Below, one piece after another: positions 6,420-61,600 of a DNA stretch of 64,000 nucleotides. The notes beneath the pieces were generated by a model, which worked only from the letters and a program-made list of their open reading frames with translations, made no database searches and was not told the DNA's origin. A program made the translations under genes and the position numbers. The first letter of the stretch is position 1. The number at the start of each line of letters is the position of its first letter. This DNA comes from Apostichopus japonicus (taxonomy: Eukaryota; Echinodermata; Holothuroidea; Aspidochirotida; Stichopodidae), in the NCBI RefSeq assembly GCF_037975245.1, contig NC_092570.1, positions 7,563,001-7,627,000 on the forward strand. The letters are read 5' to 3'.

Positions 6420-6806
6420 TCTGTTTCGTAACAGGCAGGTCGAGTCACTGGCAATCTGCTGGCACTATCTGAGACGCATATACGCTCTCTGTCCTTTATT
6501 TATCGACAGGGTGTGTGACGGGAAGTCCATTCTCTGATCTTCGGTGGTTTCCGTTAGTGTCATCATTAAAAAGTACTAACGCTGGCCGTATACTTGTTGA
6601 GTATTCAGCAGGCTGAGTAACTGGAAGTCCATTTTGCGATATTCTGTAGTTTACTTCCCTTACCATCCGTGGCATATAAACGGGAGCTCTCCTCCGGTGT
6701 ACAGCCGGCTGGGTCACTACCAGTCCACCGTCTCTTCCTCCATAGTTCACTGCTCCTGATTCAGCAGGATGAGTCACAGGATGACCATTCTCTGATGTTT
6801 GGTAAT
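6420..6806 (-). CDS. Second block of the 31-residue repeat protein, candidate exon
   Basis: A good acceptor (pyrimidine-rich tract then CAG at 6809-6807) opens an exon at 6806 on the - strand. The frame carries TSENGHPVTHPAE, VVTQPAVHRRRAPVYMPR, SQNGLPVTQPAEYS and SENGLPVTHPVDK, then stops at TAA 6496-6498. These are diverged units of the repeat at 1-790, with the same VTxPA core and YMPR motif. Another unit (LPVTRPA) lies at about 6425-6460, beyond the stop in a shifted frame, so the 3-prime side is decayed or the exon ends at the stop. No initiating exon or promoter was found upstream. The two blocks may be one gene or two copies; function unknown. Confidence 0.5.
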
Positions 6807-6942
6807 CTGAAAAGAAATTATCACTAAAGAGATTAAAACATCCAACAAATATCGTTTTTAATTTAAGTACCGTAGATTCTTGTCTTTGGCAGGGTCGTCT
6901 CTAGAGGGTTTGTGGGGGTGTCTCACCCCCCCCCCCTTAAAC

Positions 6943-8829: not shown

Positions 8830-9290
8830 TCGTTTTCGATATCATTCTCTGATATCATTCTCTATCACACCATACCAACAACCGAGGGGGACGGTATCAT
8901 TTAGGGTGTTATTTACACCCAAACGGGAAGCAAAGTCTCATCTACCGTTTATATACGGTTTTTCAACACGTTTGGCTCACAAATCAAATCTGTAACTCAG
9001 TATCATTTGAGGGGGGCCAAAAAAAGAAGCTGACGTCACCCTCTATCACCCCATGCCAACAAACTTCGGCGGACGGTATCATTTAGGGTGTTATTAACAC
9101 CCAAACGGGAAGCAAAGTCTCATCTACCGTTTATATATGGGTTTTTAACACGATTTTTGGCTAACAAATCAACTCTGTAACTAAGTATCATTGGGGGGGG
9201 AGCAAAAAAGAAGCTGACGTCACCCTCTATCACCCCATGCCAGCAAACCTCGGGGGACGGTATCATTTAGGGTGTTATTAACACCTAAAC
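8830..9290 (-). repeat. About 182-bp satellite, left array, about 2.5 units
   Basis: The phrase gacggtatcatttagggtgt occurs at 8890, 9072 and 9256, each followed by ttaacacccaaac and gcaaagtctcatctaccg. This is the same satellite as at 14395-15670 in the opposite orientation. Confidence 0.9.
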
Positions 9291-11878
9291 TCGACACAAG
9301 CTATCCGATTTATATTCTCATTGTAGAGAGAATGTGTCTCACATTAAAGAAAGAAGAGAAATTAATTGAGAAAGCCGTAAAGTAAAATGAAACTATGAGG
9401 AAAACTATGATTTTGTTTACGGAATACGGAATATTATATACAAAGATACATAAGTAAACATAAAATGACCCTACTCATATAGTATCGTTGAAATGAAATT
9501 ACAAGAAAACTCCCCGATCAGTACATCCGGACCAACTCGGAATAGATTGTAGTGTCAGTGTATATACAGTCAAATTACACCGTTTTACAAGAGTTAGTCA
9601 AAATATAGTTAATATGTCTGCAAACTTCATTCAGTATGTGTGTAGAAGGTTATCGATATGCAACCGCAATGGTGAAAAGAAGGCTTAGCGATGTTGTATT
9701 CCTTTTAAATACCAAAGGAATTAATCGCCGTGAACTAAAGATGGATTTATTTGACAGACAGCAAAATCATGTCGACAGTATAAGTATAAATTGTGAAAGT
9801 TCAGGCCCGATTGTCCTTAAATGGGATCCATACAACCATTTTGAGATAACATATGATGGGTAGTCTAATGACAATGATCCAATTGTAAATTTGGTTTAGA
9901 CAAAACATATTACATAAATTGGTTAGCGATAAATGTTATCATGGCATTTTTCTCAAATTGTCTTCAATCAACCTGATTGCATATAAGCATGTGAATTGTT
10001 TTAAGACGTTGGACCACCGAGTTGCAAACACGATGATAAAATCCATGATGTTTTGTTATTTCTCTCAAATACGTTTGCGTTATAAGCATCAATTCCATCA
10101 CAGGATATAACGTATCTGACCTCCTTGTTCAAAATGTGCCGAAAAAACTTATTTTATAAATGACCGGTTACAGTGAATAAAAAAGAATAAACGGCTCATG
10201 ACTCGAAATACATAAATTGACCTAATATCTTGACTCGATATCTGGCATTTTACATTGACAACACATGCATGTACAATATGGTCCTTGTATATACTAAGGG
10301 GAATGTATATATCAAGTAAGGCTTTCAATCAAGGTTTACTTACTGTATAAGTAGTTGAGATATTTTCATATTTTCAACAATGTTAAGATGATGATTTGAT
10401 TGGCCAAAACTACGTGAAAAGCAGCTGGGCTGATATCTTTTCTAAGTAATACGTACATTTTATGAAGTTTTAAGTTGCATTGACTTTTTTAGTTATCTTA
10501 CACATACACACACAACAAACAAACAACAAACAAACGAAGGCAAACTCCACATGAATCTTCATAGATCTTTCGGCATTCAGCAGTAAGCTGGTAAGAACCA
10601 AATTCTTTAATAGACATGCAACAAACGACAAGTAATGAAATTAATATCTAACTTATCACTGTGCCTAGCGTAGAAGAGAAAAGACCATGACTTCTTAAAC
10701 AAATTACAGGGTAGACTAATTATGGATTACCTTCTTGAACTATAAAAATTGAAAGTTTATTGAAAAATTTAGTCATATTTCTTTAAAAAAAAAACTTTTA
10801 TTAATGAAGAAAAGCACAGTGTTTTACACAAAATCGCAAATTTGGGCCCCGGATGACCGTTGGCCCCAAATTCTTACCCCTATATAGACTACTGTTCAAG
10901 TAACACTATGACCAACATTCTTCATAATCCAATGCAAACTGCACGAGAAGAACCTTTGGTGGTTTCATACAACTAACTCCAAAAGATAAGTGGTTGATCT
11001 TTGACATCCATATTTTTTTGAACACACCATAATTATGTCTCCGTATTAAGAGAACACTATGACCCAGCATGGTGATCACCCATATAGGAGAAGCATTTTG
11101 AGTGTGTTCACACAATGAACCCAGATGACCTCTGTATAACCTTTGGCATAAACTTACAAAACACCCATATGACCCACTACTCAGGGACACTATGATCAAG
11201 TTTGGTCATCTTTTATTGATGTGTACACATGCACTAACTTCACTGGAATGAAAATTGAAAATAGCTCTTTCGACTACAAGTCTGTGTAATCAACAACCGA
11301 TGGAACCTCAAGTCTTTTGTTTCATTTAGAGTGACTCAACAAAACGTACCTACACAAGTCTGTGTAATTAACAACCGATGGAACCTCGAGTCTTTTGTTT
11401 CAGTCACTATCGGTTTAATCCGTACTATACCGTTAACCAACTCCTTTAAAGGGCATAATCAACAGGCATGCAGTTACCTAAATCTTGTTTTCTATCGTTG
11501 GCTAAATTCTTCAATCTCCTTTTATGTTCCAACAAAGGTACCCTCGTGATGTTTCAGAAGACATATATTGGATATGAAGGGATCAACTTGTATTTTATAA
11601 ATTACAAACTTCATATAATGAACAAAGGGTGTATGCGTATTCCCCTTAAAGTGCACTCAACCAATGATAATGTTTCTCTACCACAGATCTAACAACTGCT
11701 GAATACAGATAATATACACTTACCATCCAAAATACAAAAGCAGGAGCACTATTTAATTTGTAAATTTGTATCCATGCATGCTAAGGATACTTATCCCAGG
11801 TTGTGATAATCACTCTTGTTCCATGTTCTGAAGTTGCCCTTCATGAATTTTGAATATGCATTAACCAGGTAATAACGC
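9291..11878. other. Segment between inverted satellite arrays and element G; no recognised gene
   Basis: AT-rich. The only open frame that looks mildly protein-like is at 9636-9863, listed separately. A short local duplication of acaagtctgtgtaatcaaca occurs near 11277 and 11354. Nothing else is supported. Confidence 0.35.
9636..9863 (+). CDS. Unrecognised 75-codon open frame
   Basis: The frame ends in DRQQNHVDSISINCESSG followed by PIVLKWDPYNHFEITYDG. Its alternation of polar and hydrophobic residues looks like beta-strand protein rather than random translation. An overlapping frame from ATG 9614 reads MSANFIQYVCRRLS and stops after about 24 codons, so a one-base shift may separate two parts of a former coding segment. 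No splice partner or family match is recognised, and it may be chance. Confidence 0.25.
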   Translation: MCVEGYRYATAMVKRRLSDVVFLLNTKGINRRELKMDLFDRQQNHVDSISINCESSGPIVLKWDPYNHFEITYDG

Positions 11879-12491: not shown

Positions 12492-14021
12492 CAGGCGCGT
12501 ATCCAGGATTTTCAAGCAATATAGAAAATCCTCCTTGAACCCCTAACAGACAGGTCAAAGTTGCACGAGTAGAGGAAAGTATGATGAAGAATGTTGGTGA
12601 GGAAATTTTCGAAAATTCAGACACAGTTAATTTATTGGTGTAGAAATATTAAAACCTCTTATAATGGCTATTATAAAACTTGGTTGAAGGAAATGAAAAA
12701 TAGCAGATATTTCCGATATCAGGTATATCGAAACCGAACACTACACACATTGGCGTAGGTCCCGTAGGAGGCGGTGGCTGCAGCCCCCTCCCCCCCCCCC
12801 CCGCAACCAAATTTTCCCCATCTTTTTCGGGCACCTACTGAAAGAAAAATAAATAGCAATGAATAGCTTAAAAATGATCTCCTTGGTAATTAAAATAAAG
12901 TTCTAAGCTTGGCCGACATTACTACTGTAAAAGAGAGTTTTGACATAAATGGATCTGTATGGTTTTTCTCCATCTACATAAGACATTTCGTTGTTTACAT
13001 AGCATCCAGCGGTATACTGTGCAACTTTCACGGACCGTGCGGTACACGATGCCATGCACTGTAATGACCGTTGCTTGCTTATATGATATTGGCATTGATA
13101 GCCTATGTTGAAAAATTTTGGCTTTTTTTTCGGGCAAGTCATTACAGCCCCCAAATCCAATTGGGCTCCTACGCCTTTAACTACACACATAGACAGTTTT
13201 TGAGGCTGTTCATCGTGGAACATGCATTTCAATGCTTACTGATACGATGTGATATCTGCTGTCTGCTTTACAAATTCAAAAAGGCGCGTAGCGAGGAATT
13301 TGCCAAGGGAGGGGCCAAGCCTGTAGGCAAACTATCTAAGCGAAGCGCCACCATGGGTTGGCGCGAAGCGTACAAGAAAAATTTTGGCCGAAAATGCCTA
13401 CCAGATCGCTGGAAATGACACTTCCCAGGCCTTGTAAGTTGCATCTAAGCATTGTCTATTTTGAAATTACTAGCGATGTCATAAAGAAAATTTGCTCGGG
13501 GGAGGGGGGCGGTCGCCCCCTTCCCGAAATGCGTCATGTACCCCGACGACTCGGTCGAGTTCAAGACCAGCCACAGTTGGTTCCATATAGCACAATTGTA
13601 CAATTGTTTAAGGCGTCCATACACACAAACGCGTTATGTTAGACCATATATAGTATTTATATAGATACATTAGTGAGAGAGGAAAAATGGAAACGTCAAA
13701 AATGGAGTTGTCGCTGTAAGGGGTAGGGTGAGGCGCACACCACCTCCGTAATCCTTGATCTGTCACTGGCTACCCTGTGTATATTATAGGGATCAGCGCT
13801 TTAACTATGACTGTTCCTCTTTCTCTTCCCGAGGTCTTGGCTATCTTCTACTCCCTCCTTGTTTCCTTTTTCTCTCTTTTTTCTTTTTCTTTTCCCTTCC
13901 TTCCTCTCCTCCTTTTCTTTTTTTTCCCCCCTCCTTTTCCCTTTTTTCTTCTCTTTTTTTCTCTCCTCTTTTCCTTACCCGGGGGGCGCGCGCCCCCAAC
14001 GCCCCCCTGGATACGCACCTG
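12492..14021 (+). mobile_element. TIR element C, copy 1, carrying nested A
   Basis: Ends CAGGCGCGTATCCAGG and CCTGGATACGCACCTG are flanked by the 5-bp duplication AGTAG (12487-12491 and 14022-14026). The interior holds family A copy 2 and the shared module (about 13325-13440). A roughly 150-bp pyrimidine tract (about 13830-13980) comes before the G/C-rich right end. The lysine/arginine-rich or proline/phenylalanine-rich frames in that tract are artefacts of its composition. Confidence 0.9.
12748..13179 (+). mobile_element. hAT-like MITE, family A, copy 2
   Basis: Ends CATTGGCGTAGG and GGCTCCTACGCCTTTA are mutated forms of the family TIR. The flanking octamer ACTACACA is duplicated exactly (12740-12747 and 13180-13187). 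It sits inside element C at the same position as family A copy 4 in the 48.9 kb element. Confidence 0.9.
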
Positions 14022-14394: not shown

Positions 14395-15670
14395 TTTAAG
14401 ACAAATTCCAAAAGTAAGATTTGATTTGTTAGCCAAATAATGTGTTGAAAACCGTATATTAACGGTTGATGAGACTTTGCGTCGAGTTTGGGTGTTAATA
14501 ACACCCTAAATGATACCGTCCCCCGAGGTTTGTTGGCATTGGGTGATAGAGGGTGACGTCAGCTACTTTGGGGAACCCAATGATACTGAGTTACAGATTT
14601 GATTTGTGAGCCAAACGTGTTGAAAAACCGTATACAAAAGGTACATGAGACCGCCTCGAGTTTGGGCGTTAATAACACCCTAAATGATACCGTTCCCCGA
14701 GGTTTATTGGTATGGGGTGATAGAGGGTGATTAAAGCTACTTTGGGGACCCCAATGATACTGAATTACAGATTTGATTTGTTAGCCAAAAATGGTGTTGA
14801 AAAACAGTATATTAACGGTAGATGAGACTTTGGCTGAGTTTAGGCGTTGATAACACCCTAAATGATACCGTCCCTCGAGGTTTGTTGGTATGGGGTGATA
14901 GAGGGTGACGTCAGCTACGTTTTTGCGCCCAGTGATACTGAGTTAACGGAGTGTTAGCTCAGTGGTTAACACCGGTGCCTTTCAATCATAAGGTCCCCCG
15001 GTTCGAGTCACTCCCAGATTAATGTATGTCGTCCAGTTACAGAGTTGTTGACAATTAACAATCGTAATCATTGACGTTAAATATGAATGTGAGAGACTGA
15101 CTTCGGTCAGCTTACGGCTTTGATAAGCCAATTAGGCTTCTTCGCGAGTTCCTGCTTGCAGGAGGATCTAATATACATACATACATAGTTACAGATTTGA
15201 TTTGTTAGCCAAAAAACGTATTGAAAACCGTATATTAACGGTAGATGAGACTTTGCCTCGAGTTTAGGCGTTAATAACACCCTAAATGATACCGTCCCCA
15301 GCGGTTTCTTGGCATGGGGTGATAGAGGGTGACGTCAGCTACTTTGGGGACCCCAAAGATACTGAGTTACAGATTTGATTTGTTAGCAAAAAAACGTGTT
15401 GAAAAACTGTATATAAACTGTAGATGAGACTTTGCCTCGAGTTTGGGCGTTAATAACAACCTAAATGATACCGTCCCCCGAGGTTTGTTGGCATGGGGTG
15501 TTAGAGGGTGATGTCAGCTAGTTTGGGTACCCCAATGATACTGAGTTACAGATTTTATTTGTTAGCCAGAAATGGTTTTGAATAACAGTATATATATGCT
15601 ACGTTCGACTTTCAGTTGCCGAGTTAATTGTTAATAACCCCCTGCCCGACATCGTCCCTCACGGTTGTTG
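14395..15670 (+). repeat. About 177-bp satellite, right array, about 6-7 units
   Basis: The phrase aaatgataccgtc or aaatgataccgtt occurs at 14508, 14682, 14860, 15284 and 15463, with a decayed unit near 15640. Spacing is 174-179 bp once a SINE insertion is discounted. Units contain acagatttgatttgttagcc, gtagatgagactttg and gggtgatagagggtgacgtc. The orientation is opposite to the 8830-9290 array. Confidence 0.92.
14947..15187 (+). mobile_element. tRNA-derived SINE inserted in the satellite
   Basis: The head contains a good polymerase III A box (tagctcagtgg, about 14954) and B box (ggttcgagtc, 15000-15009) spaced as in a tRNA. A non-tRNA body follows, with cttcggtcagcttacggc and ataagccaattaggcttctt, then a catacatacatac tail. 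The satellite word agtta flanks both sides, consistent with a short target duplication. Confidence 0.85.
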
Positions 15671-33005: not shown

Positions 33006-33122
33006 TTCTTTACAGAGGAAAGAAGTCTTCTATTGATTCTTTATCACCTATATTAAAAAGTCAATTTGATATAGCAAGTAGAGGAAATATTGATATTCCT
33101 GTGATATTCCTGTGATATTCCT

Positions 33123-33478
33123 GTGAGTCAGTTAATCTTAATGATGGTGGTGATGGTGTTGGAGGTGGTGGTGGTGGTTGTGGTGGTGGTGGTGGTGGAG
33201 GTGGTGATGGTGATGATGGTGGAGATGGTGATGGTGATGATGGTGGAGGTGGTGATGGTGGTGATGGTGGCGATGGTGGTGGTGATGGTGATGATTGTGG
33301 AGATGGTGATGGTGATGATGGTGGAGGTGGTGATGGTGGTGGAGGTGGTGATGGTGATGATGGTGGAGGTGGTGATGGTGATGATGGTGGAGGTGGTGAT
33401 GGTGGTGATGGTGATGATGGTGGAGATGATGATGGTGGAGGTGGTGATGGTGGCGGTGGTGGTGATGGTGATCTGTTA
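33123..33478 (+). repeat. GGTGAT/GGTGGT-type microsatellite
   Basis: About 340 bp of interrupted ggt, gat and ggtgat triplets and hexamers. Because the period is a multiple of three, every frame is open. The His-rich, Pro/Ser-rich and Met/Val-rich frames here are products of composition, not genes. Confidence 0.95.
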
Positions 33479-35475
33479 ATCTTCCTGTTGAGAAATTGTA
33501 CACATAACAGAGACGTCAAAACATTTCATTTATTTACCACTGCTTTAAAATGCTTTTTTGTCTTGTGTATGATTTCATTTACTATTATGTGTTCAATGCA
33601 AGGTCCATCAGTAACATTTTACTACCAAATGGTTTCCTAATAAAGAAGCCACTGACAAAAAAAAATGCCATCAGATAGGATCTTCATTAATCTATCTTCT
33701 AAAAATATTCTCACTGCTTGCAATATGTTATCTCCATTGTCAAATTATATTAATAAGATATTTATGGTCAGTGCAAGAAAATCTTTAATTATTCTTTTGT
33801 TGCCTAGTTTATATTCAACAGATAGCTAAATGAAGGAAATTATTGTTGCATTGGTTAGATCAGAACAGATGTAATGGTATGGAACCTATATAAGGTACTC
33901 TGATTAGCTGCAGGATTCTTATATAGCTTCTCTGGATAAACTTCAAAGATTTTTGCATGTGTCAATGGAAAGTAATTACCAGTCTTGCATTCATGTATGA
34001 TGAATATTTGAAGAAATTTTAAATGGGATCCTAAATGAACACTTCCAGAGTTATAAAATTGTAAATGTCAGATGTACTTTTCTTGCCAAGCCCAATGATG
34101 ATGGAGATTATACTTCCAAAGTTCTCAGCAACTTACATGTAGGACTACTCCTATGGATTTTGCATTATTTCCACAAAAAGAAGCACTTAGAGGAAGCATC
34201 CCTTAAAGCAGTTTTGAGTTTGTAGCCACTAGAGATTCAAATCAGACCTGACATAGTCATTACTGTATTTTTCAAATTTCATGTTTAGTAACTTCCGCTT
34301 GCGAACATGTATTTCCACTCAGTCAAAGATGGAGGATAATACAAAATAAACATGAAATGTTATCATATTTCATGCAGTGCTGCTTCCATTTGTACCATAC
34401 CATTAATTAAATTTATGGACAAGTTCTACTATAGAGCAGCACTACAGTTCTCACTCAGATACAGGGATCATTCATTGACAAGCATAATTCTTACATTGGT
34501 AGAGGTTATCTATTGAGATGTACTTCCTTTAAGTAATCATGTGTACATGTTAGTCATGTTAAATTGGTATTGTGGTTTGCTAGCCATTTCTCATGTATTA
34601 GAAATGGAAGGGATATAATTTTCTGACTGTTTTAAGTCATCTTTCCTTTAACAGACATCATAAATACAACAAAAAACATCTCCTTATTATTTAGTCTTCT
34701 GTCCGTCTTAAATTTTGAGATGCTGCACCAATCCCTTACGTGGAGTGGGTGTTTGTCATACAGCTCACATTCAAGTGGCTGAAATTGTTATTGGGCCTTG
34801 AAACTATCTAATATGGAGGAAGATAACCCCAAGTATAATTGTAAGTGGTAATAGTATTCAGTGTGTGTGTGTTTTTTTCTCTGTCTCCATTTTTCTAATT
34901 TCCACTTGTAACAGTCCATTGAAAACATAAACTACATATCTACTTTGCGAAAACGAACTGTACTTGATGATGAGCAAGTGGTATGCTAAATGAGTGGTTC
35001 TAAGTAGGTGAAAGGATGTCTAAAGGGTGTTCTCTCTGGGTTCCGTCTGAAGTTGGTGATCATACCCCCCCCCCCACTCCCACCCCTCCTTGTATGTCAT
35101 AACATACTGCATGTGGCACTTGATTGGTCTATTCATCATTTGACTGGATATCCACATGTTGCTATGTAAATAACCCTTCCCACCCACCCATACACTTACT
35201 TGAAAGAAGGTGATCCTGCACAGTTCAGCTTCACATGTTATCTATCATGTAAATGCATGTGGTTCATGCCCCTCCACCTTCCCCTCCCCACATACAACCA
35301 GAATAACATCTACTTCCACAGTAAGTTTTAAGAGAAGGCTTACATTTGTGTAGCCTCCATTTTGTGTGATATTGTCGTTCGGGGAAAGGGAACTCTAACC
35401 CATGTAACTCATCCTCCTATGTTAACATACACTTTAAGAAAAACAGAATGAAAAAGTGCATTGTGGTTTTGATGA
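33479..35475. other. No gene recognised
   Basis: AT-rich sequence with a C run near 35066-35075. No exon, tRNA or repeat is supported. Confidence 0.3.
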
Positions 35476-49555: not shown

Positions 49556-50229
49556 CATAGGCGTAGGAGGCGCGGCGGCAGTGGCGGAGCTAGGGGTATT
49601 GGTCAGGAGAGGCGAGAATGGTCTGTAGGGGCGCTTTCGACACTATCTAAGCGGAGCGCCACCACTGGTTAGCGCGTAGCGCACAGACAAATTTTGAGAA
49701 AAGATACTCCCTAGATCGCCGGAAATGACCACTTTCAGGGCCTGGCTAATTTGCAGATAAACGAAGAATAGGGTGTCATCGCCAAATTACACCAACAAAA
49801 TGTGACAAATGTCAATAAGTAGATGAGAGCGCAATAAAAAAGTCAATAATCTAGAATAAGTAAAAAGTGGTAAAGAGCTGAAAAAGGCGCCAGCAGTCCA
49901 TTTGAGTCCGTCAGGGGGCGCATCCGCCCCCTGGCCGTATGGAGGCTCCGTCACTGCGCGGCGGGGGTGCAGCCCCTAATTCGCCATTACTAATGTAAAA
50001 GAAACTTTTGACATAATTGGACCTCCATGCTTTTTATACATCTACATGAGACATGTCGTTGTTTACATTAGCATCCCGCGGTATACTGCGCAATTTTAAC
50101 GGACCGTACGGTAGGCCTACATGATGGCATGCGATGTAATAACCGATGCTTGCTTATATGATATTGACATTGACACGTTGAACGCGCGCTTCGCGCGCGA
50201 AAGCATTCGGTTATTTTTTCAGGCAAGTC
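49556..50229 (+). mobile_element. hAT-like MITE, family A, copy 4 (right end deleted)
   Basis: The left end CATAGGCGTAGGAG follows actacaca, the same host site as copy 2 at 12748. The right side runs to caggcaagtcg at 50229 and then passes directly into host sequence (aacagttttgagg), so the terminal segment and second duplication are deleted. Family B copy 3 interrupts it. Confidence 0.8.
49579..49956 (+). mobile_element. hAT-like MITE, family B, copy 3, nested in family A
   Basis: Ends CAGTGGCGGAGC and GCTCCGTCACTG are flanked by an exact 8-bp duplication CGCGGCGG (49571-49578 and 49957-49964). Length is 378 bp. The shared module is at about 49635-49745. Confidence 0.93.
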
Positions 50230-51224
50230 GAACAGTTTTGAGGATTTTCATCCCGGAACGCCATTTTCATGCTCACTGATATGATGTGATATCTGCTGTT
50301 TGCGTTACAAATTCGAACAGGCGCGTAGCGAGGAATTTGCGAAGCCTGTAGGCAAATTATCTAAGCGTAGCGCCACCATAGGTTGGCGCGAAGCGTACAA
50401 GAAAATTTTGGCCGAAAATGCCTCCCAGATCGCTGGAAATGGCACTACCCAGGACCATTTGTTAGCGCGAAGCGTACAAGCAAATTTTGGCCGAAAATGT
50501 CTCCCAGATCGCTGCAAATGACACTTCCCAGGCCTTGTAAGTTGCATCTAAGCACTTTCTGTTTTGAAATTACTTAGCGATATCATTTAAAAATATGCTG
50601 AATGGGGGGGGGGGGGCGGTCGCCCCCATCCCAAAATGCGTCATGTTCCCCGACGACACGGTCGAGTTCGAGACCAGCCACAGTTGGTTTCAGAGCACAA
50701 TTCTACACACGCGTTATGATAGACCATATATAGTATATATATATAAATCATTAGTGAGAGAGGAAAATGGAAACGTCAAAAAATGGAGTTGTCGGTGTAA
50801 GGGGTAGGGTGAGGCACACTTTTACGAAATCATTGATCCGTCACTGGCTACCCTTCAGCGCTGTAATGATGTCACTGTTCCTCTTTCTCTTCCCGGTGTC
50901 TTCGCGTTTTTCTTTTACTCCCTCCTTTTCTCCTTCTTCTCTCTTTCTTCTTTTTCTTTTCCCTTCCTTCCTCTCCTCCTCCTCGTTTTCCCCTCTTTTT
51001 TCCTTTTTTCTTCTCTTTTTTCTCTCTCCTCTTTTTTCTTACCCGGGGGGCGCGCGCCCCCAACGCCCCCCCCCTGGATACGCACCTGGTAACACCCCAA
51101 TTTGTTACAAATTACATTAGATAACTGCGCCCGTCAGAGAAATAACTTTCCCTAGGTGAATGAAGTGACCTATGTAAGGGAATTTCCCCAATTGAAAACA
51201 ACCACGCGCATTTGTTCCTGAACC

Positions 51225-52422
51225 TACGGAAGCGTAGAAGGGACATGGTGATGAAAGAGTAACGAACTCGTCAAAATGACAAAATTCAGAAAAATGACGT
51301 TTTGCCGAGTTTAACAACTGGTCAAAACGACAAAATTATTAAATTTGCCGAGATACAACAAGTCGTCACAATGACAAAATTCCGAAAATTGACGTTTTGC
51401 CGAGATACAACAAGTCGTCAAAATGACAAAATTCCGAAAATTGACGTTTTGCCGAGATACAACAAGTCGTCAAAATGACAAAATTCCGAAAATTGACGTT
51501 TTGCCGAGATACAACAAGTCGTCAAAATGACAAAATTCCGAAAATTGACGTTTTGCCGAGATACAACAAGTCGTCAAAATGACAAAATTCTGAAAATTGA
51601 CGTTTTGGTGAGATACGACAATTCGTCAAAATGACAAAATTCTGAAAATTGACGTTTTGTTGAGATACGACAATTCGTCAAAATGACAAAATTCTGAAAA
51701 TTGACGTTTTGCCGAGATAAAACAAGTTGTCAAAATGACAAAATTCTGAAAATTGACGTTTTGCCGAGATACAACAAGTTGTCAAAATGACAAAATTCCG
51801 AAAATTGACGTTTTGCCGAGATACAACAACTCAAAACGTCAATTTTCAGATTTTTGTCATTTTGACGACTTGTTGTATTTCGGCAAAACGTTAAGATTCA
51901 GATTTTTGTCATTTTGACGACTTGTTATATCTCTGCAAAACGTCAATTTTTAAAATTTTGTCATTTTGACGAGTTGTTGTATCTCGGCAGAACGTCAATT
52001 TTCAAAATTTTGTCATTTTGACGAATTGTCGTATCTCAAGAAAACGTCAATTTTCAGATTTTTGTCATTTTGACGACTTGTTGTATCCCGGCAAAACGTC
52101 AATTTTCAAAACTTTGTCATTTTGACGACTTGTTGTATCTCAGCAAAACGTCAATTTTCAGATTTTTGTTATTTTGATGAGTTATTGTATCTCGGCAAAA
52201 CGTCAATTTTCAGATTTTTGTCATATTGATGAGTTATTGTTTCTCGACATAACTTCAATTTTCAGAATTTTGTCATTTTGACGATTTGTTGCATCTCGGC
52301 AAATTTAATAATTTTGTCGTTTTGACGAGTTGTAAAACTCGACAAAACGTCATTTTTCTGAATTTTGTCATTTTGACGAGTTTGTTTCTCTTTCATCACC
52401 ATGTCCCTTCTACGCTTCCGTA
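51225..52422. mobile_element. Foldback transposon-like element built from inverted 52-bp arrays
   Basis: The terminal segments are near-perfect inverted repeats, 2 differences over about 63 bp (left TACGGAAGCGTAGAAGGGAC, right its complement ending at 52422). Inward lie arrays of a 52-bp unit containing gtcaaaatgacaaaattc and gacgttttgccgag. About 11 units lie on the left (unit starts 51391, 51443, 51495, 51547, 51599, 51651, 51703, 51755, 51807). The orientation flips at about 51833, and about 11 inverted, more diverged units follow. TGAACC flanks both ends (51219-51224 and 52423-52428), a likely 6-bp duplication. There is no unique central segment and no gene. The structure matches foldback elements such as TU elements of sea urchins in organisation. 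Confidence 0.88.
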
Positions 52423-52473
52423 TGAACCCCCTATGGCCTAGCATAGAGCAAGGCGCTGTTTACCTGAGTAAAT

Positions 52474-52503
52474 CAGAGCCGTATGTTTAAATATACGGCT
52501 CTG
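52474..52503. repeat. 11-bp hairpin upstream of ACOT9
   Basis: The arms cagagccgtat and atacggctctg are exact reverse complements around an 8-nt loop (gtttaaat). It lies between the foldback element and the ACOT9 start. Confidence 0.7.
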
Positions 52504-52559
52504 GAGTAAATGCGATAGTATTACATATAAACATCACGGAGCCTGGCGACTGAATGGAA

Positions 52560-52663
52560 GCGCCGTAATTTTAAAGTATCTTCGGTAATATTATATAGGC
52601 TAGCAGCATCAGTCTCTTCAAGCCGATCGATTGTTTCAAGGAGAAACACCTCGGATTACAAAA
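52560..52663 (+). promoter_or_regulatory. Putative ACOT9 core promoter and 5-prime UTR
   Basis: A tcagtct at 52609-52615 fits an initiator element and would give a 5-prime UTR of about 53 nt. A tatatagg at 52593-52600 is too close to that initiator to be its TATA box. The position rests mainly on the downstream start codon. Confidence 0.3.
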
Positions 52664-52689
52664 ATGGCTGCTCGCACTTTTCAATTCGT
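52664..52689 (+). CDS. ACOT9: ACOT9 exon 1 (coding part)
   Basis: Encodes MAARTFQF plus two bases of the next codon, ending at donor gt|gtaagt. A at -3 and G at +4 favour this ATG. The link to exon 2 is by frame and leader-like composition, not homology, since presequences are poorly conserved. Confidence 0.7.
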
Positions 52690-55600
52690 GTAAGTGTTTA
52701 CAGAATTAAGCTTTTAAACAAGTTAATTATCTATGCTCGGTAGGCTATTGAGTAAGAACTTAGGGGGAAGTCATGATAGCCTTTGGTTAGGTTTACTAAT
52801 GCTGCCTATCGCTGTACAACTTTGGTACTGCGTGTAGCGTTATGTTATTTGAGGTTAGGCTACCAATGGAAGTCTCAAAACAGCAAAAGCTAGATTACTG
52901 AGGGTTAACATGTATTATATTGTGAACCCAAACAGTGTTGCCATTGTCCAACATGGTAGCCTCATAATAAAAAGTAGCTGTCTGGAACTAAGAGAACTTA
53001 AATCACTTCAAATTTTGAAAGTTGTTTGGATACAACTAGTATACTATAGACTATAGTATAGAACATGCCAACATGCAAGTCCACTTTGTAGCCGAATACA
53101 TCGTCACACATGCACACAATTCCCACACAGAACAACAAAGACTAACGGATCTCGTTCAACCAAACCCATGCATAACCACGGAAAGTTCCAGTGTAGCCAC
53201 TACCGTGGAAACCTTTGGACTTAATGCTAAAGTGGCTTAAGGAACAATTGGGGTAGTTGATGGTCGTTTTCATTATATATAATTCTGCAGGGGTATTTTC
53301 ATGAAAGATCTGACACTGTTGGTGTAACCACTACACAACCAACCTTTGTACTTATTTGAAATATGTTCAAAAGATTTTGCAAAACTTGATGTAGCCACCT
53401 GATTTGAGGGGGAGGTGGGGGGGGGGTCTCATGTGGCTGAGTATGCTATAATTGCTCATACATATATACATACTAGGCCTAGTTATCCCACAAATCATAA
53501 CATAGGATCAATTTGTTGCCAAGCACCCCTAGTAACTCACACATTTCTACAGATTATAACTAAAATTAGAACATTCCTATGAATGATACATGTTTGCATA
53601 TTACATAATGACCTGTTAAGGGATCATTTAAAAACGCCATATCTGGGTCCGTCTATGATTATGTAAAATTAAATATTCACTCTCCGGTTGCATGCTGTTT
53701 TTCGCTAATTTTTCAACAGAAACGTAACTTTTCAGTTTGCACAGTTTCCTAATTCCCAAATTATTTGAACTGCATGTTTCCATTAGAGATGTTACGTACC
53801 ATTTTTCAATCATTCACAAATTCTGAAAGAATTCTTAGGAGTGGTTGCAGTGGAAACATTTCAAGATGTATTGCAATCAAATGAAAAGGATATGTAGTGA
53901 TGGGGAGGGAGATTTGAGGTAGATGGTATCTCTTTGGGGAAGGTGAGTTGCAGAAAGGGATTGAACAAAAGTCGCTAAATCAAGGAATAGAGATGGAAGG
54001 GTAAGAACAATAAAGGGGACAATAGTTTTTCTATATTCGTCAATCCAATCGTTATTGATTCTGTTTATGATCTCTCGCCACCAATGTTTGCATGTACACC
54101 TTTTCACATTGAACAAGGTTCAGAAGTTTTTTGTAATTCTGTAACTTATTCAAAATGTTTGGACTCATTGTTTGGAGCTGTTTATACAGATCATACATTC
54201 AACTTATTAAAAAGTATCACATACAGTAGTTCTGGAAATGAATTGTGCACCTTTCAGTGGGATTATGATACTTTCTCATTCTGATATAATACATATTAAT
54301 TAAGAAGTAAAGACCTCAAAAGTAGACATCAATGAGTCATTTCTACATCTGAATTGAACATTGGCAAGTTGATTCTGACGGATTCACTAAAACCTGCCAC
54401 ACACTGTAGGACTGATCCCAGCCCTGCTCAACTGGACCTTCGTTACATGGAAAATCTTCAATTGTGAAGACTGAAAGTCCTACCACTGACCCCAGCAAAC
54501 TGACCGACTGATCAGAGCCCACAAGGACCGTTTGTTGTTAATGACCAGAGCTCATTCGGGTCGCATACAAATTCATGAAACTGTGATTGGTTTTATTTGT
54601 TAAAACTGTCCAGTACATTCGTCTAGATCATCCACACGCTACAGGACTGCCAGTCTGGAAAATTGATACATGGTCAGTTTCCCTGAATGAAGCCAGGGTG
54701 ACTTAAAACTGGCAAAGAAACGATCAGTCTTAAACCGTCGCACACTGGCCGACTGTCCATGTTTTCCCACATTACGATAGATGTGTTGCATCGAGTCATG
54801 AGCATTCATGTGGTGTGCAAGGGGTGTTAACATGAAGAGAAGTGTTTTGCATTTTGTTTGGTTTGACATAATTTGTTAGAAGAAAACAATCCTTCTTTGC
54901 AATATCATGTATTCGTTGAGAAAGGTATGGTAGGCTAGAGACCAAGAAATTGTTATTCAGAATAATTGTGTGACGGCTGAATGGTAACAACATCAGACAA
55001 TTTCAAAGTGTATTCAAAAACATGCCATGCTGACAGTCGACCCATTACTCTAAATGAGTATGTAAACTACTGTACGTTAAAATTAGGTTCAGCTTTAAAC
55101 ATACATGAATGCATTCATGACAAACATCAAAGTAGCATGTGATTATATATACCATAGGCGTAGGAGCCTAATTTGATTTGGGGGGCTGTAACAACTTGCC
55201 CGAAAAATAAAACCCAAACTTTTTCGCTCATTCAACATGTTAATGTGCATATCATATAGGCATCCCTCCGGTTATTATATCACATGCCATTAACAGACAA
55301 TCATTTTCCGTGTTATTACCCTTCCATATTGGTTATAATTATTGGGCAAGTCGTTACAATAATAATGGTAATAATAATGTAAGTTCAACCAATATTGAAA
55401 AACACATTGCAAATTAGTTTTCTCTCAGTACAGCTGTAGGTGCCCGAAAAATTCTCAGCATATTGCCAGAATTTTCACCAAAAAAATTGGTTGGGGGAGC
55501 TGCAGCCCCCCCAGCCCCAGCCCCCCCCCCCTCCTACGCCTATGTGATTATATCTAGAGAAAACGATGACATTAAAATATTTGACGTTTAACCAAATAAG

Positions 55601-58600: not shown

Positions 58601-61600
58601 GCAAATCATAATATTTAGTTATATTTTTTTTGTGTATCTTACTGTGATATGATTCCTTCAACCCTTGTAGTTCTGCAGTCAGGTCCATACATTAGTACAG
58701 TACACAACATGCAGTGTGGGAAATAACCATTAGAGGGTGCGCCACAATTTGCTCAATTTGCAAGAGCGTCCTCCCTTCACGCTAAGTACCATTGACAGGA
58801 AACGATTTTCTCCACGGTGTGCATAAAGGTGGGATCCACGTAAAAGTGAGGAGGCCTTGCCTTCATATTACAAGGCTGTTCATCTTGAAACTTTTACTTT
58901 TACTTTTTAAGAAAGGCCATCTTGGAGGGTGACAGCAGGACAAAGAGGAATGGAATCAAGGAAAAATGACAAAGGAACCTAAGACAAAAAGTTATTCTAG
59001 CTCAGTTTGTAAACCCAACGTTTGGTTCCTGTGCAAAAGGCACATTACAATTTCTTTGCAAAGTGTAAACCATTTTGCTTTGAGTTGTATCTTAAACTTA
59101 TTGAAAGATTCTTATTCGTATATGTTTGCTCATTTCATTATATTAAAAAATTTTTTTTGGTTTTCTTTTCATAGTAATGATTTCTTACAAGCATAACATG
59201 CCTGATCCTGGTCAAGAGACATCTCCTCTTACTATCGTAACAGCATTGGTCGACAGGTTAGGTATGATAAAGCTTTCTCTTTTTATGATAGAGGAATGAA
59301 GGAGGGGGGGAATAGAGTAGTGGAAGGGGGAGGAGTATATAATCCCTGTCTCTGAAAAAAGGAAGCTGTTTATCTTTCCTTGAGCAACTTTTTGATTCAG
59401 CTTCGTCTTCTACATTACATGTGTAATGATATTGAAAAGTCTTTGTTAGTGCGTAGAAAAAGAACTTTTATTTTTTTTTTAATTAGATATCTTTCACACA
59501 TTCTCCAATTTTCAGTGATGTAGTTTATTAATGTGCCTAGCTACCTGACATGAATTTCCAAGATTTTACAGATGCCTCGAAATGTCAGTGATCAAGAGTA
59601 AATTGTTGAGTTGTTTATGAAGTTCATGCTCTAACACCTATTGTAGAAGACGGAAACTATTGTCGTATTTTTGAGCTACGGTTTAAATTCTTGGCTGAGA
59701 GTGTCATTAGCGTGACATTCTGCCAAGTTTGCATACTCCCTCATTATTGAGTTCTATCTTGGTGAGCGTGGTGGCCAATTGTCTAAGGCGTCGGACTCGT
59801 GATCCAAGGATTGCTGGTTCGATTCCTGCCTCGTTCATTACGTTGTGTCCTTGGGCAAGATGCTTTATCTAAATTGCCTCTCTCCACCCAGGGGTTAAAT
59901 GGATACCTGTGAGGTAACTTGTCATAGGGCGCAGTATGTAACTGCTGCCGACTGGAGGGATTGTCTCTGGGACAGGTTATCATTGACCAGGGGTAATATA
60001 ACATCTGTGAAGCGCTTTGAGACCTATCGCTGGTATAAAGCGATATATAGAAAGGAAATATTAATATTATTTCATTATTATTATTATGTGTAATGTTCTA
60101 CTTTTTTTCTTTTTTAAATACTAACCAATTTAAGAAGGAATTTATCTTTATGTATTTTACCTCAAAAAAGAAGAAAATAGAAAATAAAGAAAGCTTAAAT
60201 TATTTTGATGTTTTGTCTCTAATCAGATTAGCAGAAATAATATTTTCCACAGAGAAATTTCTTCTCCTCTAGATTTGCACACAAAGATTGTCGGAGTGGA
60301 GCATGACCTCAAATTGACCGGCAATGTCACCTGGGTTGGCACCTCCTCCATAGAAGTAGCAATGTCTGTAAAAATGGTAATCGTCTTCCCGGGCTTTTCC
60401 TATTTTTACTTTTCAGTGGAAGGGAAGGTGTGTGGGGGAGGGGGTGAGGGGGAGGGTGGTGGAAGGTGGGGTTTATTTAGATGGGGATTGCTCTACTAAG
60501 GATGCTAAAATAAAGGCAAGAAGAGACAGATGTCTGACGAGTACTTCTCAGTCCTGGTGATCGTCAAATTATAAAGTGATGGTTATTCTTAGCTGTGATA
60601 TCAACTGTATTCCTCTGCTGATAATGAACCTCCCAAGCATTGTGTATGTTTACCTCTACCAGGAAGTCACCGTCATTATTATAAATAGCTTTGAAAACCG
60701 TCTCAAAAAAGGAGTAGCTCTTCCTGGCTGACTGTGTTACGTAGATGACGAACCACTGTTATTCATCGCAGAGTAGGTTTCTCGCTGTGAGTTGAGACTA
60801 TGGAAAAATGTGTCACAAGTTCAACTTATATGTCTGATGTAACTATTTCATTATTGAAATACATGTTTGCTTGTTTTCTTGATATCTCCTTAGCTCAAGG
60901 ATGGCTCAGAAGAAGAAATTGTTTCCACGACGTTTGTCAACGTCGCCAGAGATTCTGGTAATTCAAGGTAAGAACGATTGCTTCGAGCGTTCTTATCATC
61001 AATCGGTCAAAGGCATTGAAGACTCGCCCCAAACCGTGTGCCACGCTCTGAAAAAGTTAACTTCATGTTGCTTGCAAATGACGTTTCTTCTTGTCGCTAC
61101 AAAATGTAGACAGTAATGAAACGTGATACCTTGTTATCTTTTATCTACACCTGAGATGTCCACGCTGCTATGTGCACTGTGTTGTGGGTATTGACCGTAG
61201 CTGTATGTATTGACTGTACAATAGTGTCTAATTACCGACGGTAGCAAGCTGTGTGTGTATTTTCTGGGATGGATGGTGGTGTCTTACACTTCCGTTACAC
61301 CTCATTCCAAACTTGGTCATATTACCAGCATGAGACGTTTCTTTGTGCGCAAGTCTTCACACCCTTTAATAGTCCGAAAAAGAGAGATGAAGATAAATAA
61401 AAATGTATTTTAAAACACGGCTCAAGTTGAACATACATGCACTAACATATATTTTTGATCGTCACAAAGACCCATTTTGAAAAATAGGCACAATTTCAGT
61501 CTCCCGGCAGACCAATATATATTATTCCTCGCACAAAGGGGACAATCCAATCGTATGGTAACAAAAGCCTTACATGATTTTTATAAGAATGTACACTCAC

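What the first reader, a model, noticed from the sequence alone, without database searches (positions are those of the whole stretch)
51225..52422. Foldback element of inverted 52-bp arrays next to a gene start
Two arrays of a 52-bp unit face each other about 51833, capped by near-identical terminal segments of about 63 bp and flanked by TGAACC on both sides. Nearly the whole 1.2 kb can fold back on itself. The left array is more homogeneous (several units identical) than the right. That suggests array expansion after the two arms formed, or gene conversion within one arm. Foldback elements such as the sea urchin TU family have long inverted arms of short tandem repeats, but this 52-bp unit is not one I recognise.
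Basis: partly seen in the sequence, partly recalled or inferred. Interest (0 to 1): 0.72.

Follow-up and report, generated by a model that had tools for sequence, protein, structure and literature searches.

The report
Hairpin-shaped non-autonomous DNA transposon insertion
This is a 1.2-kb piece of probably mobile DNA built almost wholly of two mirror-image arrays of a 52-base repeat; its ends and the 6-base target duplication match a little-studied transposon group (IS3EU), and the papers searched here describe no such hairpin form in that group.

Summary
Window 51225-52422 (1198 bp) is two 591-bp inverted arms, 91% complementary without a gap, around a 16-nt loop, with an exact 6-bp duplication TGAACC on both sides. 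Each arm is a perfect 35-bp terminal repeat (TACGG...), 84 bp of diverged cap units, then nine 52-bp units. A 15-bp core, GTCAAAATGACAAAA (up to 2 mismatches), occurs 11 times per arm, in one orientation per arm, and nowhere else in the window. It is not a simple assembly palindrome: the arms differ at 52 of 591 sites and the flanks are not mirror images. I read it as a transposed, non-autonomous foldback element. Its termini and TSD fit the published IS3EU/GingerRoot signature, not Mutator, P/Galileo or Dada. It most likely moves by a transposase supplied in trans, with the units as extra binding sites, as for Galileo; site constraint was not shown. Copy number, empty sites and the transposase could not be tested: the genome search did not complete (17 of 17 attempts, last). 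A new variant of a known kind; moderate interest.

The parts
51219..51224 (.). left target-site duplication TGAACC
   Evidence: exact 6-of-6 match to the right flank; no other length from 2 to 12 matches
51225..51259 (+). left 35-bp terminal inverted repeat, TACGGAAGCGTAGAAGGGACATGGTGATGAAAGAG
   Evidence: 35 of 35 identical to the right end; its first 26 bases have 2 matches in the window (up to 3 mismatches), both here, 0.00 expected
51260..51343 (+). left cap: about 1.6 diverged copies of the 52-bp unit
   Evidence: local alignment to the unit consensus, score 114 against a maximum of 31 in 500 shuffles
51344..51811 (+). left array: nine 52-bp units (L2-L10)
   Evidence: TRF period 52, 96% matches; units listed
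51812..51835 (.). turning point: last partial left unit, with the 16-nt loop 51816-51831; no unique middle domain
   Evidence: arms end at 51815 and start at 51832; centre 51823.5
51836..52303 (-). right array: nine 52-bp units (R2-R10), more diverged
   Evidence: TRF period 52, 82% matches over 51832-52379; units listed
52304..52387 (-). right cap of diverged units
   Evidence: 79 of 84 bases identical to the left cap; score 110 to the unit
52388..52422 (-). right 35-bp terminal inverted repeat, ending ..CCGTA
52423..52428 (.). right target-site duplication TGAACC

Best explanation
A non-autonomous cut-and-paste DNA transposon of foldback shape, inserted here once with a 6-bp target duplication, and probably mobilised in trans by an IS3EU/GingerRoot-type (integrase-like DDE) transposase. 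Shown: the boundary, the terminal repeat, the 6-bp duplication, the array structure and the absence of a long ORF. Inferred: the superfamily (from termini and TSD length only); that the transposase cuts at the TACGG ends; that the arrays (11 copies of the core motif per arm) are extra transposase-binding sites that help pair the ends; that the units arose by duplication of the segment just inside the terminus; and that the second arm was made by copying the first (snap-back or repair synthesis), after which the left arm was homogenised while the right gathered mostly private changes.
For: TIR ends and TSD meet exactly, with only length 6 of 2-12 fitting. In a scan of the window for exact 10-bp inverted ends 60-8000 bp apart with flanking direct repeats of 2-10 bp, this was the only candidate that starts with TA and has a 6-bp duplication. 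IS3EU: always TA..TA termini, TSD usually 6 bp; GingerRoot: 6 bp, mostly TA..TA (PMC10045372, passages). Fungal IS3EU: TIRs over 30 bp ending TAYGG..CCRTA, 6-bp TSDs (PMC12730594, passages); here TACGG..CCGTA, 35 bp, 6 bp. None of the 24 ORFs of 110 aa or more in the window overlaps the element; longest open stretch inside 71 codons. Core motif: 22 matches in the window at up to 2 mismatches (16 exact), all in the element, 11 per arm, one orientation per arm; 0.67 expected. Right-arm changes: 5 in the 15 core columns and 5 in 12 columns of GAAAATTGACGT, against 29 in the other 25 (segments chosen by eye). Cap segment clearly a variant of the unit, as TIR-220 resembles the Tetris end (PMC4079207, passages). 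In Galileo, transposase THAP-domain sites recur in the first two of four direct repeats of the long TIR (PMC3688188, abstract and section 2.6). Arms are equal in length, gapless, and share the position-7 variant (L7, L8 and R7 group together in a tree without support values).
Against: One copy only; no second copy, empty site or transposase was seen, because the genome search did not complete. Superfamily rests on five terminal bases and TSD length. An alternative cut (TA target duplication, ends CGGAAG) cannot be excluded by the ends alone. The register of units between arms is not significant (p = 0.12; mean 5.22 mismatches at shift 0, but 5.00 at shift +4), which weakens the one-arm-copied-from-the-other model. 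Units of one arm are closer to each other than to the other arm (p = 0.007), yet 7 of 9 right units have L6 among their nearest neighbours, so the right arm shows little homogenisation of its own. The unbiased test for a protected 15-bp block was not significant (p = 0.36), although changes are unevenly spread over the unit (p = 0.0006), so binding-site constraint is not shown.
Confidence: 0.72

Rival explanations
1. A foldback element of the Mutator (MULE) superfamily, where most foldbacks have been placed.
For: Foldback shape with tandem repeats in the arms; [quoted passage not shown] Tm1 is called a Mutator/Foldback family (PMC3169594, passages).
Against: TSDs of 8-10 bp (Tetris) or 9 bp (Tm1); here 7 to 12 bp do not match and 6 does exactly.
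Confidence: 0.07
2. A Tc1/mariner-like or other TA-inserting foldback: ends CGGAAG.., target duplication TA, and the outer TGAACC match is chance.
For: The TA at both ends can be read as a TA duplication (sequence).
Against: An adjacent 6-mer match has probability 4e-4 by chance. No catalogue of mariner ends was on hand; from memory CGGAAG is not a usual mariner end.
Confidence: 0.08
3. A DNA transposon of an undescribed or other superfamily that also makes 6-bp duplications.
For: No transposase was seen, so kinship is untested.
Against: The five end bases match the IS3EU signature at both sides. Dada (6-7 bp) has no terminal inverted repeats in the families described in the passages seen and sits in multicopy small-RNA genes (PMC3706591, passages); ARAGORN found no tRNA at 50000-54000, and the only Rfam match in the window at gathering score is a tRNA at 59765-59836.
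Confidence: 0.09
4. An assembly or library artefact (foldback chimera), or a palindrome made by local inverted duplication of a satellite array without transposition.
For: Single copy seen; arms of equal length with no gap.
Against: Arms differ at 52 of 591 sites; 0 shared 12-mers between the 400-bp left flank and the reverse complement of the 400-bp right flank; the palindrome stops exactly at a 6-bp direct repeat.
Confidence: 0.04

Closest known systems
IS3EU / GingerRoot superfamily (PMC10045372 and PMC12730594, passages)
   Same: TA..TA ends, here TACGG..CCGTA; 6-bp TSD; TIR over 30 bp
   Different: No transposase; almost all of the element is inverted 52-bp arrays. The search of the held library for IS3EU together with foldback found one paper, where foldback stands only in a reference title.
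Galileo (P superfamily) of Drosophila
   Same: Long internally repetitive TIRs, with repeated transposase-binding sites shown for Galileo
   Different: P-superfamily transposase with a THAP domain and, from memory, 7-bp TSD; repeats of about 210 bp in the F group of D. mojavensis (PMC3573991, passages)
Tetris of Drosophila virilis
   Same: Foldback, non-autonomous; tandem repeats that its authors derive from the terminal domain
   Different: ~220-bp repeats, 8-10 bp TSDs, a middle domain; its authors suggest Mutator
Tm1 of root-knot nematodes
   Same: TIRs largely of short tandem repeats
   Different: 13-15 bp repeats, 9-bp TSD, Phantom-like (Mutator) transposase
Sea urchin TU elements (recalled, no text seen)
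   Same: Foldback arms of short tandem repeats
   Different: From memory ~15-bp repeats and 8-bp TSD

Membership tests
IS3EU/GingerRoot | TA..TA termini (TAYGG..CCRTA in the fungal families described) | tested here: met
   TACGG..CCGTA, signature
IS3EU/GingerRoot | 6-bp target-site duplication | tested here: met
   TGAACC on both sides; one locus only
IS3EU/GingerRoot | IS3EU-type DDE transposase in the autonomous relative | not testable with these tools
   no long ORF in the element; genome search unanswered (last)
Foldback elements (structural class) | long inverted arms containing tandem repeats | tested here: met
Foldback elements (structural class) | dispersed copies with different target duplications | not testable with these tools
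   one copy in the window; genome search unanswered (last)
Mutator/MULE foldbacks | 8-10 bp TSD | tested here: not met
   lengths 7-12 do not match; TSD lengths
P superfamily (Galileo) | TSD of about 7-8 bp (7 recalled for Galileo; ~8 for P) | tested here: not met
Dada | no TIR; insertion in multicopy small-RNA genes | tested here: not met
   35-bp perfect TIR; no tRNA at 50000-54000; no Rfam match at the site at gathering score
Tc1/mariner | TA target duplication | tested here: inconclusive
   TA is present at both ends but a 6-bp repeat lies outside it

The most novel reading that the evidence does not exclude
An IS3EU/GingerRoot lineage has independently evolved the foldback form: the segment just inside the end, itself an imperfect palindrome, was multiplied into arrays of like-oriented transposase sites until nothing else was left, so that the whole element is a nested palindrome (half-unit, unit, arm, element). 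That would put convergent foldback evolution in a group related to bacterial IS3/IS481 and, as far as I know, distinct from Mutator and P.
Probability: 0.4. Interest if true: 0.5.

Novelty: new variant of a known kind. Interest (0 to 1): 0.38.

Why it matters
Foldback-like elements have generated chromosomal inversions (Galileo, abstract) and can seed satellite DNA (Tetris, passages). If the same shape arose in an integrase-like superfamily, it would suggest that multiplying transposase sites in long inverted arms is a general route for non-autonomous transposons, and it gives a defined sequence with which to test what those arrays do. A roughly 590-bp hairpin about 240 bp from a possible gene start could also make double-stranded RNA or affect that gene's expression; this is untested.

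Tried and rejected
Genome-wide copy search: the genome search (own, the whole element as query) was asked 17 times and never answered, so copy number, empty sites and transposase genes stay open. An exact 29-bp TIR pattern against IMG/VR: 0 matches.

Register test of units between arms: diagonal sum 47 against a mean of 52.3, permutation p = 0.12; not significant, and shift +4 (5 pairs) has a lower mean, 5.00, than shift 0 (9 pairs), 5.22. Within-arm against between-arm distance: p = 0.007; all nine left units have their nearest neighbours in the left arm, but 7 of 9 right units have L6 among theirs and R7 has L8. Protected-block test within the unit: not significant (p = 0.36). The unit is itself an imperfect palindrome (32 of 52 self-complementary at the best rotation; 9 of 2000 mononucleotide shuffles reach that), and the arms turn 1.5 bp from one of its two dyad centres (unit index 11.5 against 13); by my own arithmetic that has a chance of roughly 0.12-0.15 by luck, so it is only suggestive.

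Neighbouring gene: exon-like ORFs at 57.7-62.9 kb on the + strand look to me like acyl-CoA thioesterase 9 (ACOT9) by recall, but Pfam, PDB and NCBIfam gave no supporting match, so this is unconfirmed. Host: not identified; TAGGCCTA occurs 16 times in 64 kb, which I recall as common in echinoderm-like genomes, not a test.

Literature, ten searches (several capped lists of larger sets): IS3EU with target site duplication, 9 papers; IS3EU with foldback, 1 paper, in a reference title; (IS3EU with echinoderm words, any two) listed only papers without IS3EU. The GingerRoot paper was not held. IS3EU-related satellites are listed in oyster (CgiSat35 and CgiSat47) and half of Tribolium TCAST10 resembles IS3EU-1_TC, so links between IS3EU and tandem repeats exist in print. 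Coral MITEs (PMC2872659, passages) have TTAA duplications. Passages of PMC9860276, PMC9783078 and PMC10853768 added background only.

Full report
What is there. Window 51225-52422 holds two inverted arms of 591 bp, 91% complementary and gapless, with 16 nt between them. They differ at 52 sites, 31 of them transitions. From the outside in, each arm has a 35-bp terminal repeat identical at both ends (TACGGAAGCGTAGAAGGGACATGGTGATGAAAGAG); an 84-bp cap, 79 of 84 identical between arms, that aligns to the 52-bp unit as about 1.6 diverged copies (scores 114 and 110; the left cap shuffled 500 times reached at most 31); nine 52-bp units; and the turning point. There is no unique middle. The palindrome stops exactly where a 6-bp direct repeat, TGAACC, begins on both sides; no other length from 2 to 12 matches, and two 6-mers of this window agree by chance with probability 4e-4. 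The longest open frame inside is 71 codons and none of the 24 ORFs of 110 aa or more in the window overlaps the element.

Not an artefact of the obvious kind. A foldback chimera would be expected to give near-identical arms and mirrored flanks. Here the arms differ by 9%, and no 12-mer is shared between the 400-bp left flank and the reverse complement of the 400-bp right flank. Reads were not available.

How the arrays evolved. Left units differ by 2.97 bases per pair on average, right units by 7.28, units across arms by 5.81. All nine left units have their nearest neighbours in the left arm; of the nine right units, seven have L6 among their nearest, R7 has L8 and R3 has R4. Within-arm distances are smaller than between-arm distances (permutation p = 0.007). 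The plainest reading is that the left arm has been homogenised (or stayed near the ancestral unit) while the right gathered mostly private changes. A variant unit (GATACGACAATTCG) sits at position 7 in both arms and at 8 in the left; L7, L8 and R7 group together in a FastTree tree built without support values. Together with equal, gapless arms this suggests that both arms come from one ancestral arm. Against this, the register test over all nine units was not significant (p = 0.12), and the mean mismatch at shift +4 (5.00, 5 pairs) is lower than at shift 0 (5.22, 9 pairs), so it is a lead. The unit is itself an imperfect palindrome (32 of 52; 9 of 2000 mononucleotide shuffles as high), and the arms turn within 1.5 bp of one of its two dyad centres, which would fit snap-back copying from a unit hairpin.

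Which transposon. IS3EU families always have TA..TA termini and usually 6-bp TSDs, and GingerRoot has 6-bp TSDs and mostly TA..TA (PMC10045372, passages). Fungal IS3EU families have TIRs over 30 bp ending TAYGG..CCRTA and 6-bp TSDs (PMC12730594, passages). The element has TACGG..CCGTA, a 35-bp perfect TIR and a 6-bp TSD. Mutator foldbacks (8-10 bp), P/Galileo (about 7-8 bp, partly recalled) and Dada (no TIR, RNA-gene targets) fail on tested features. A TA duplication with a chance 6-bp match remains possible. No transposase was seen, so membership is by termini and TSD only.

How it probably works. A transposase supplied in trans would bind near both ends, cut at the TACGG ends and insert with a 6-bp stagger. 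The core GTCAAAATGACAAAA is present 11 times per arm (up to 2 mismatches; 16 of the 22 exact), in one orientation per arm, and nowhere else in the window (0.67 expected). In Galileo, DNase I footprinting and EMSA showed sites for the transposase's THAP domain, two of them in the first two of four TIR direct repeats (PMC3688188, abstract and section 2.6), and its authors suggest that multiple sites supply specificity. By analogy the 52-bp units would be multiplied binding sites. Right-arm changes are uneven over the unit (p = 0.0006) and few in the core (5 in 15 columns) and in GAAAATTGACGT (5 in 12) against 29 in the other 25 columns, but those segments were chosen by eye and the unbiased 15-bp block test gave p = 0.36. 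Constraint is therefore not shown.

Setting. The element ends 242 bp before a possible first coding exon (52664-52689, ATG then a GTAAGT donor; by eye). Exon-like frames at 57.7-62.9 kb look like ACOT9 from memory, with no tool support. The host was not identified.

What is new. A foldback built on IS3EU-type ends was not found in the held library: the search for both words gave one paper, where foldback stands only in a reference title. Repbase and Dfam themselves were not searchable here, and most subscription papers are not held. I rate it a new variant of a known kind, of moderate interest, pending the genome-wide search, which did not answer in 17 of 17 attempts (last).

Noticed in passing
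8860-9299 and 14417-15612: Two arrays of a ~174-184 bp unit in inverted orientation, about 5 kb apart (78-96% complementary in the 25 of 33 pairs listed); possibly the internally repetitive arms of another, larger element. Its termini were not determined.
   Followed up: partly
14957-15180: A stretch beginning like a tRNA (GTTAGCTCAGTGGTTAA..GGTTCGAGTC) interrupts the second of those arrays; looks like a tRNA-derived SINE by recall (by eye).
   Followed up: no
59765-59836: Rfam tRNA match, 30.9 bits against a gathering score of 29; weak, perhaps SINE-borne.
   Followed up: no
102-704 and 6496-6900 (- strand): A 93-bp array (25-691) leaves a 200-aa frame open on the - strand with a recurring motif like SENGxPVTQPA; a second 134-aa frame has similar motifs (SENGxPVTHP, SQNGLPVTQPA). 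The Pfam matches listed were all below the curated cut-offs.
   Followed up: partly
about 13314-14000 and 50339-51075: Related dispersed repeats (families D7 and D14: AGCGCCACCAT core, CT-rich stretch; a G+C-rich end by eye); the second ends about 150 bp before the foldback element.
   Followed up: no
33061-33525: G-rich array of ~9- and 24-bp units that leaves several frames open in both strands, including a Pro/Ser-rich one; probably a simple repeat rather than a gene.
   Followed up: no
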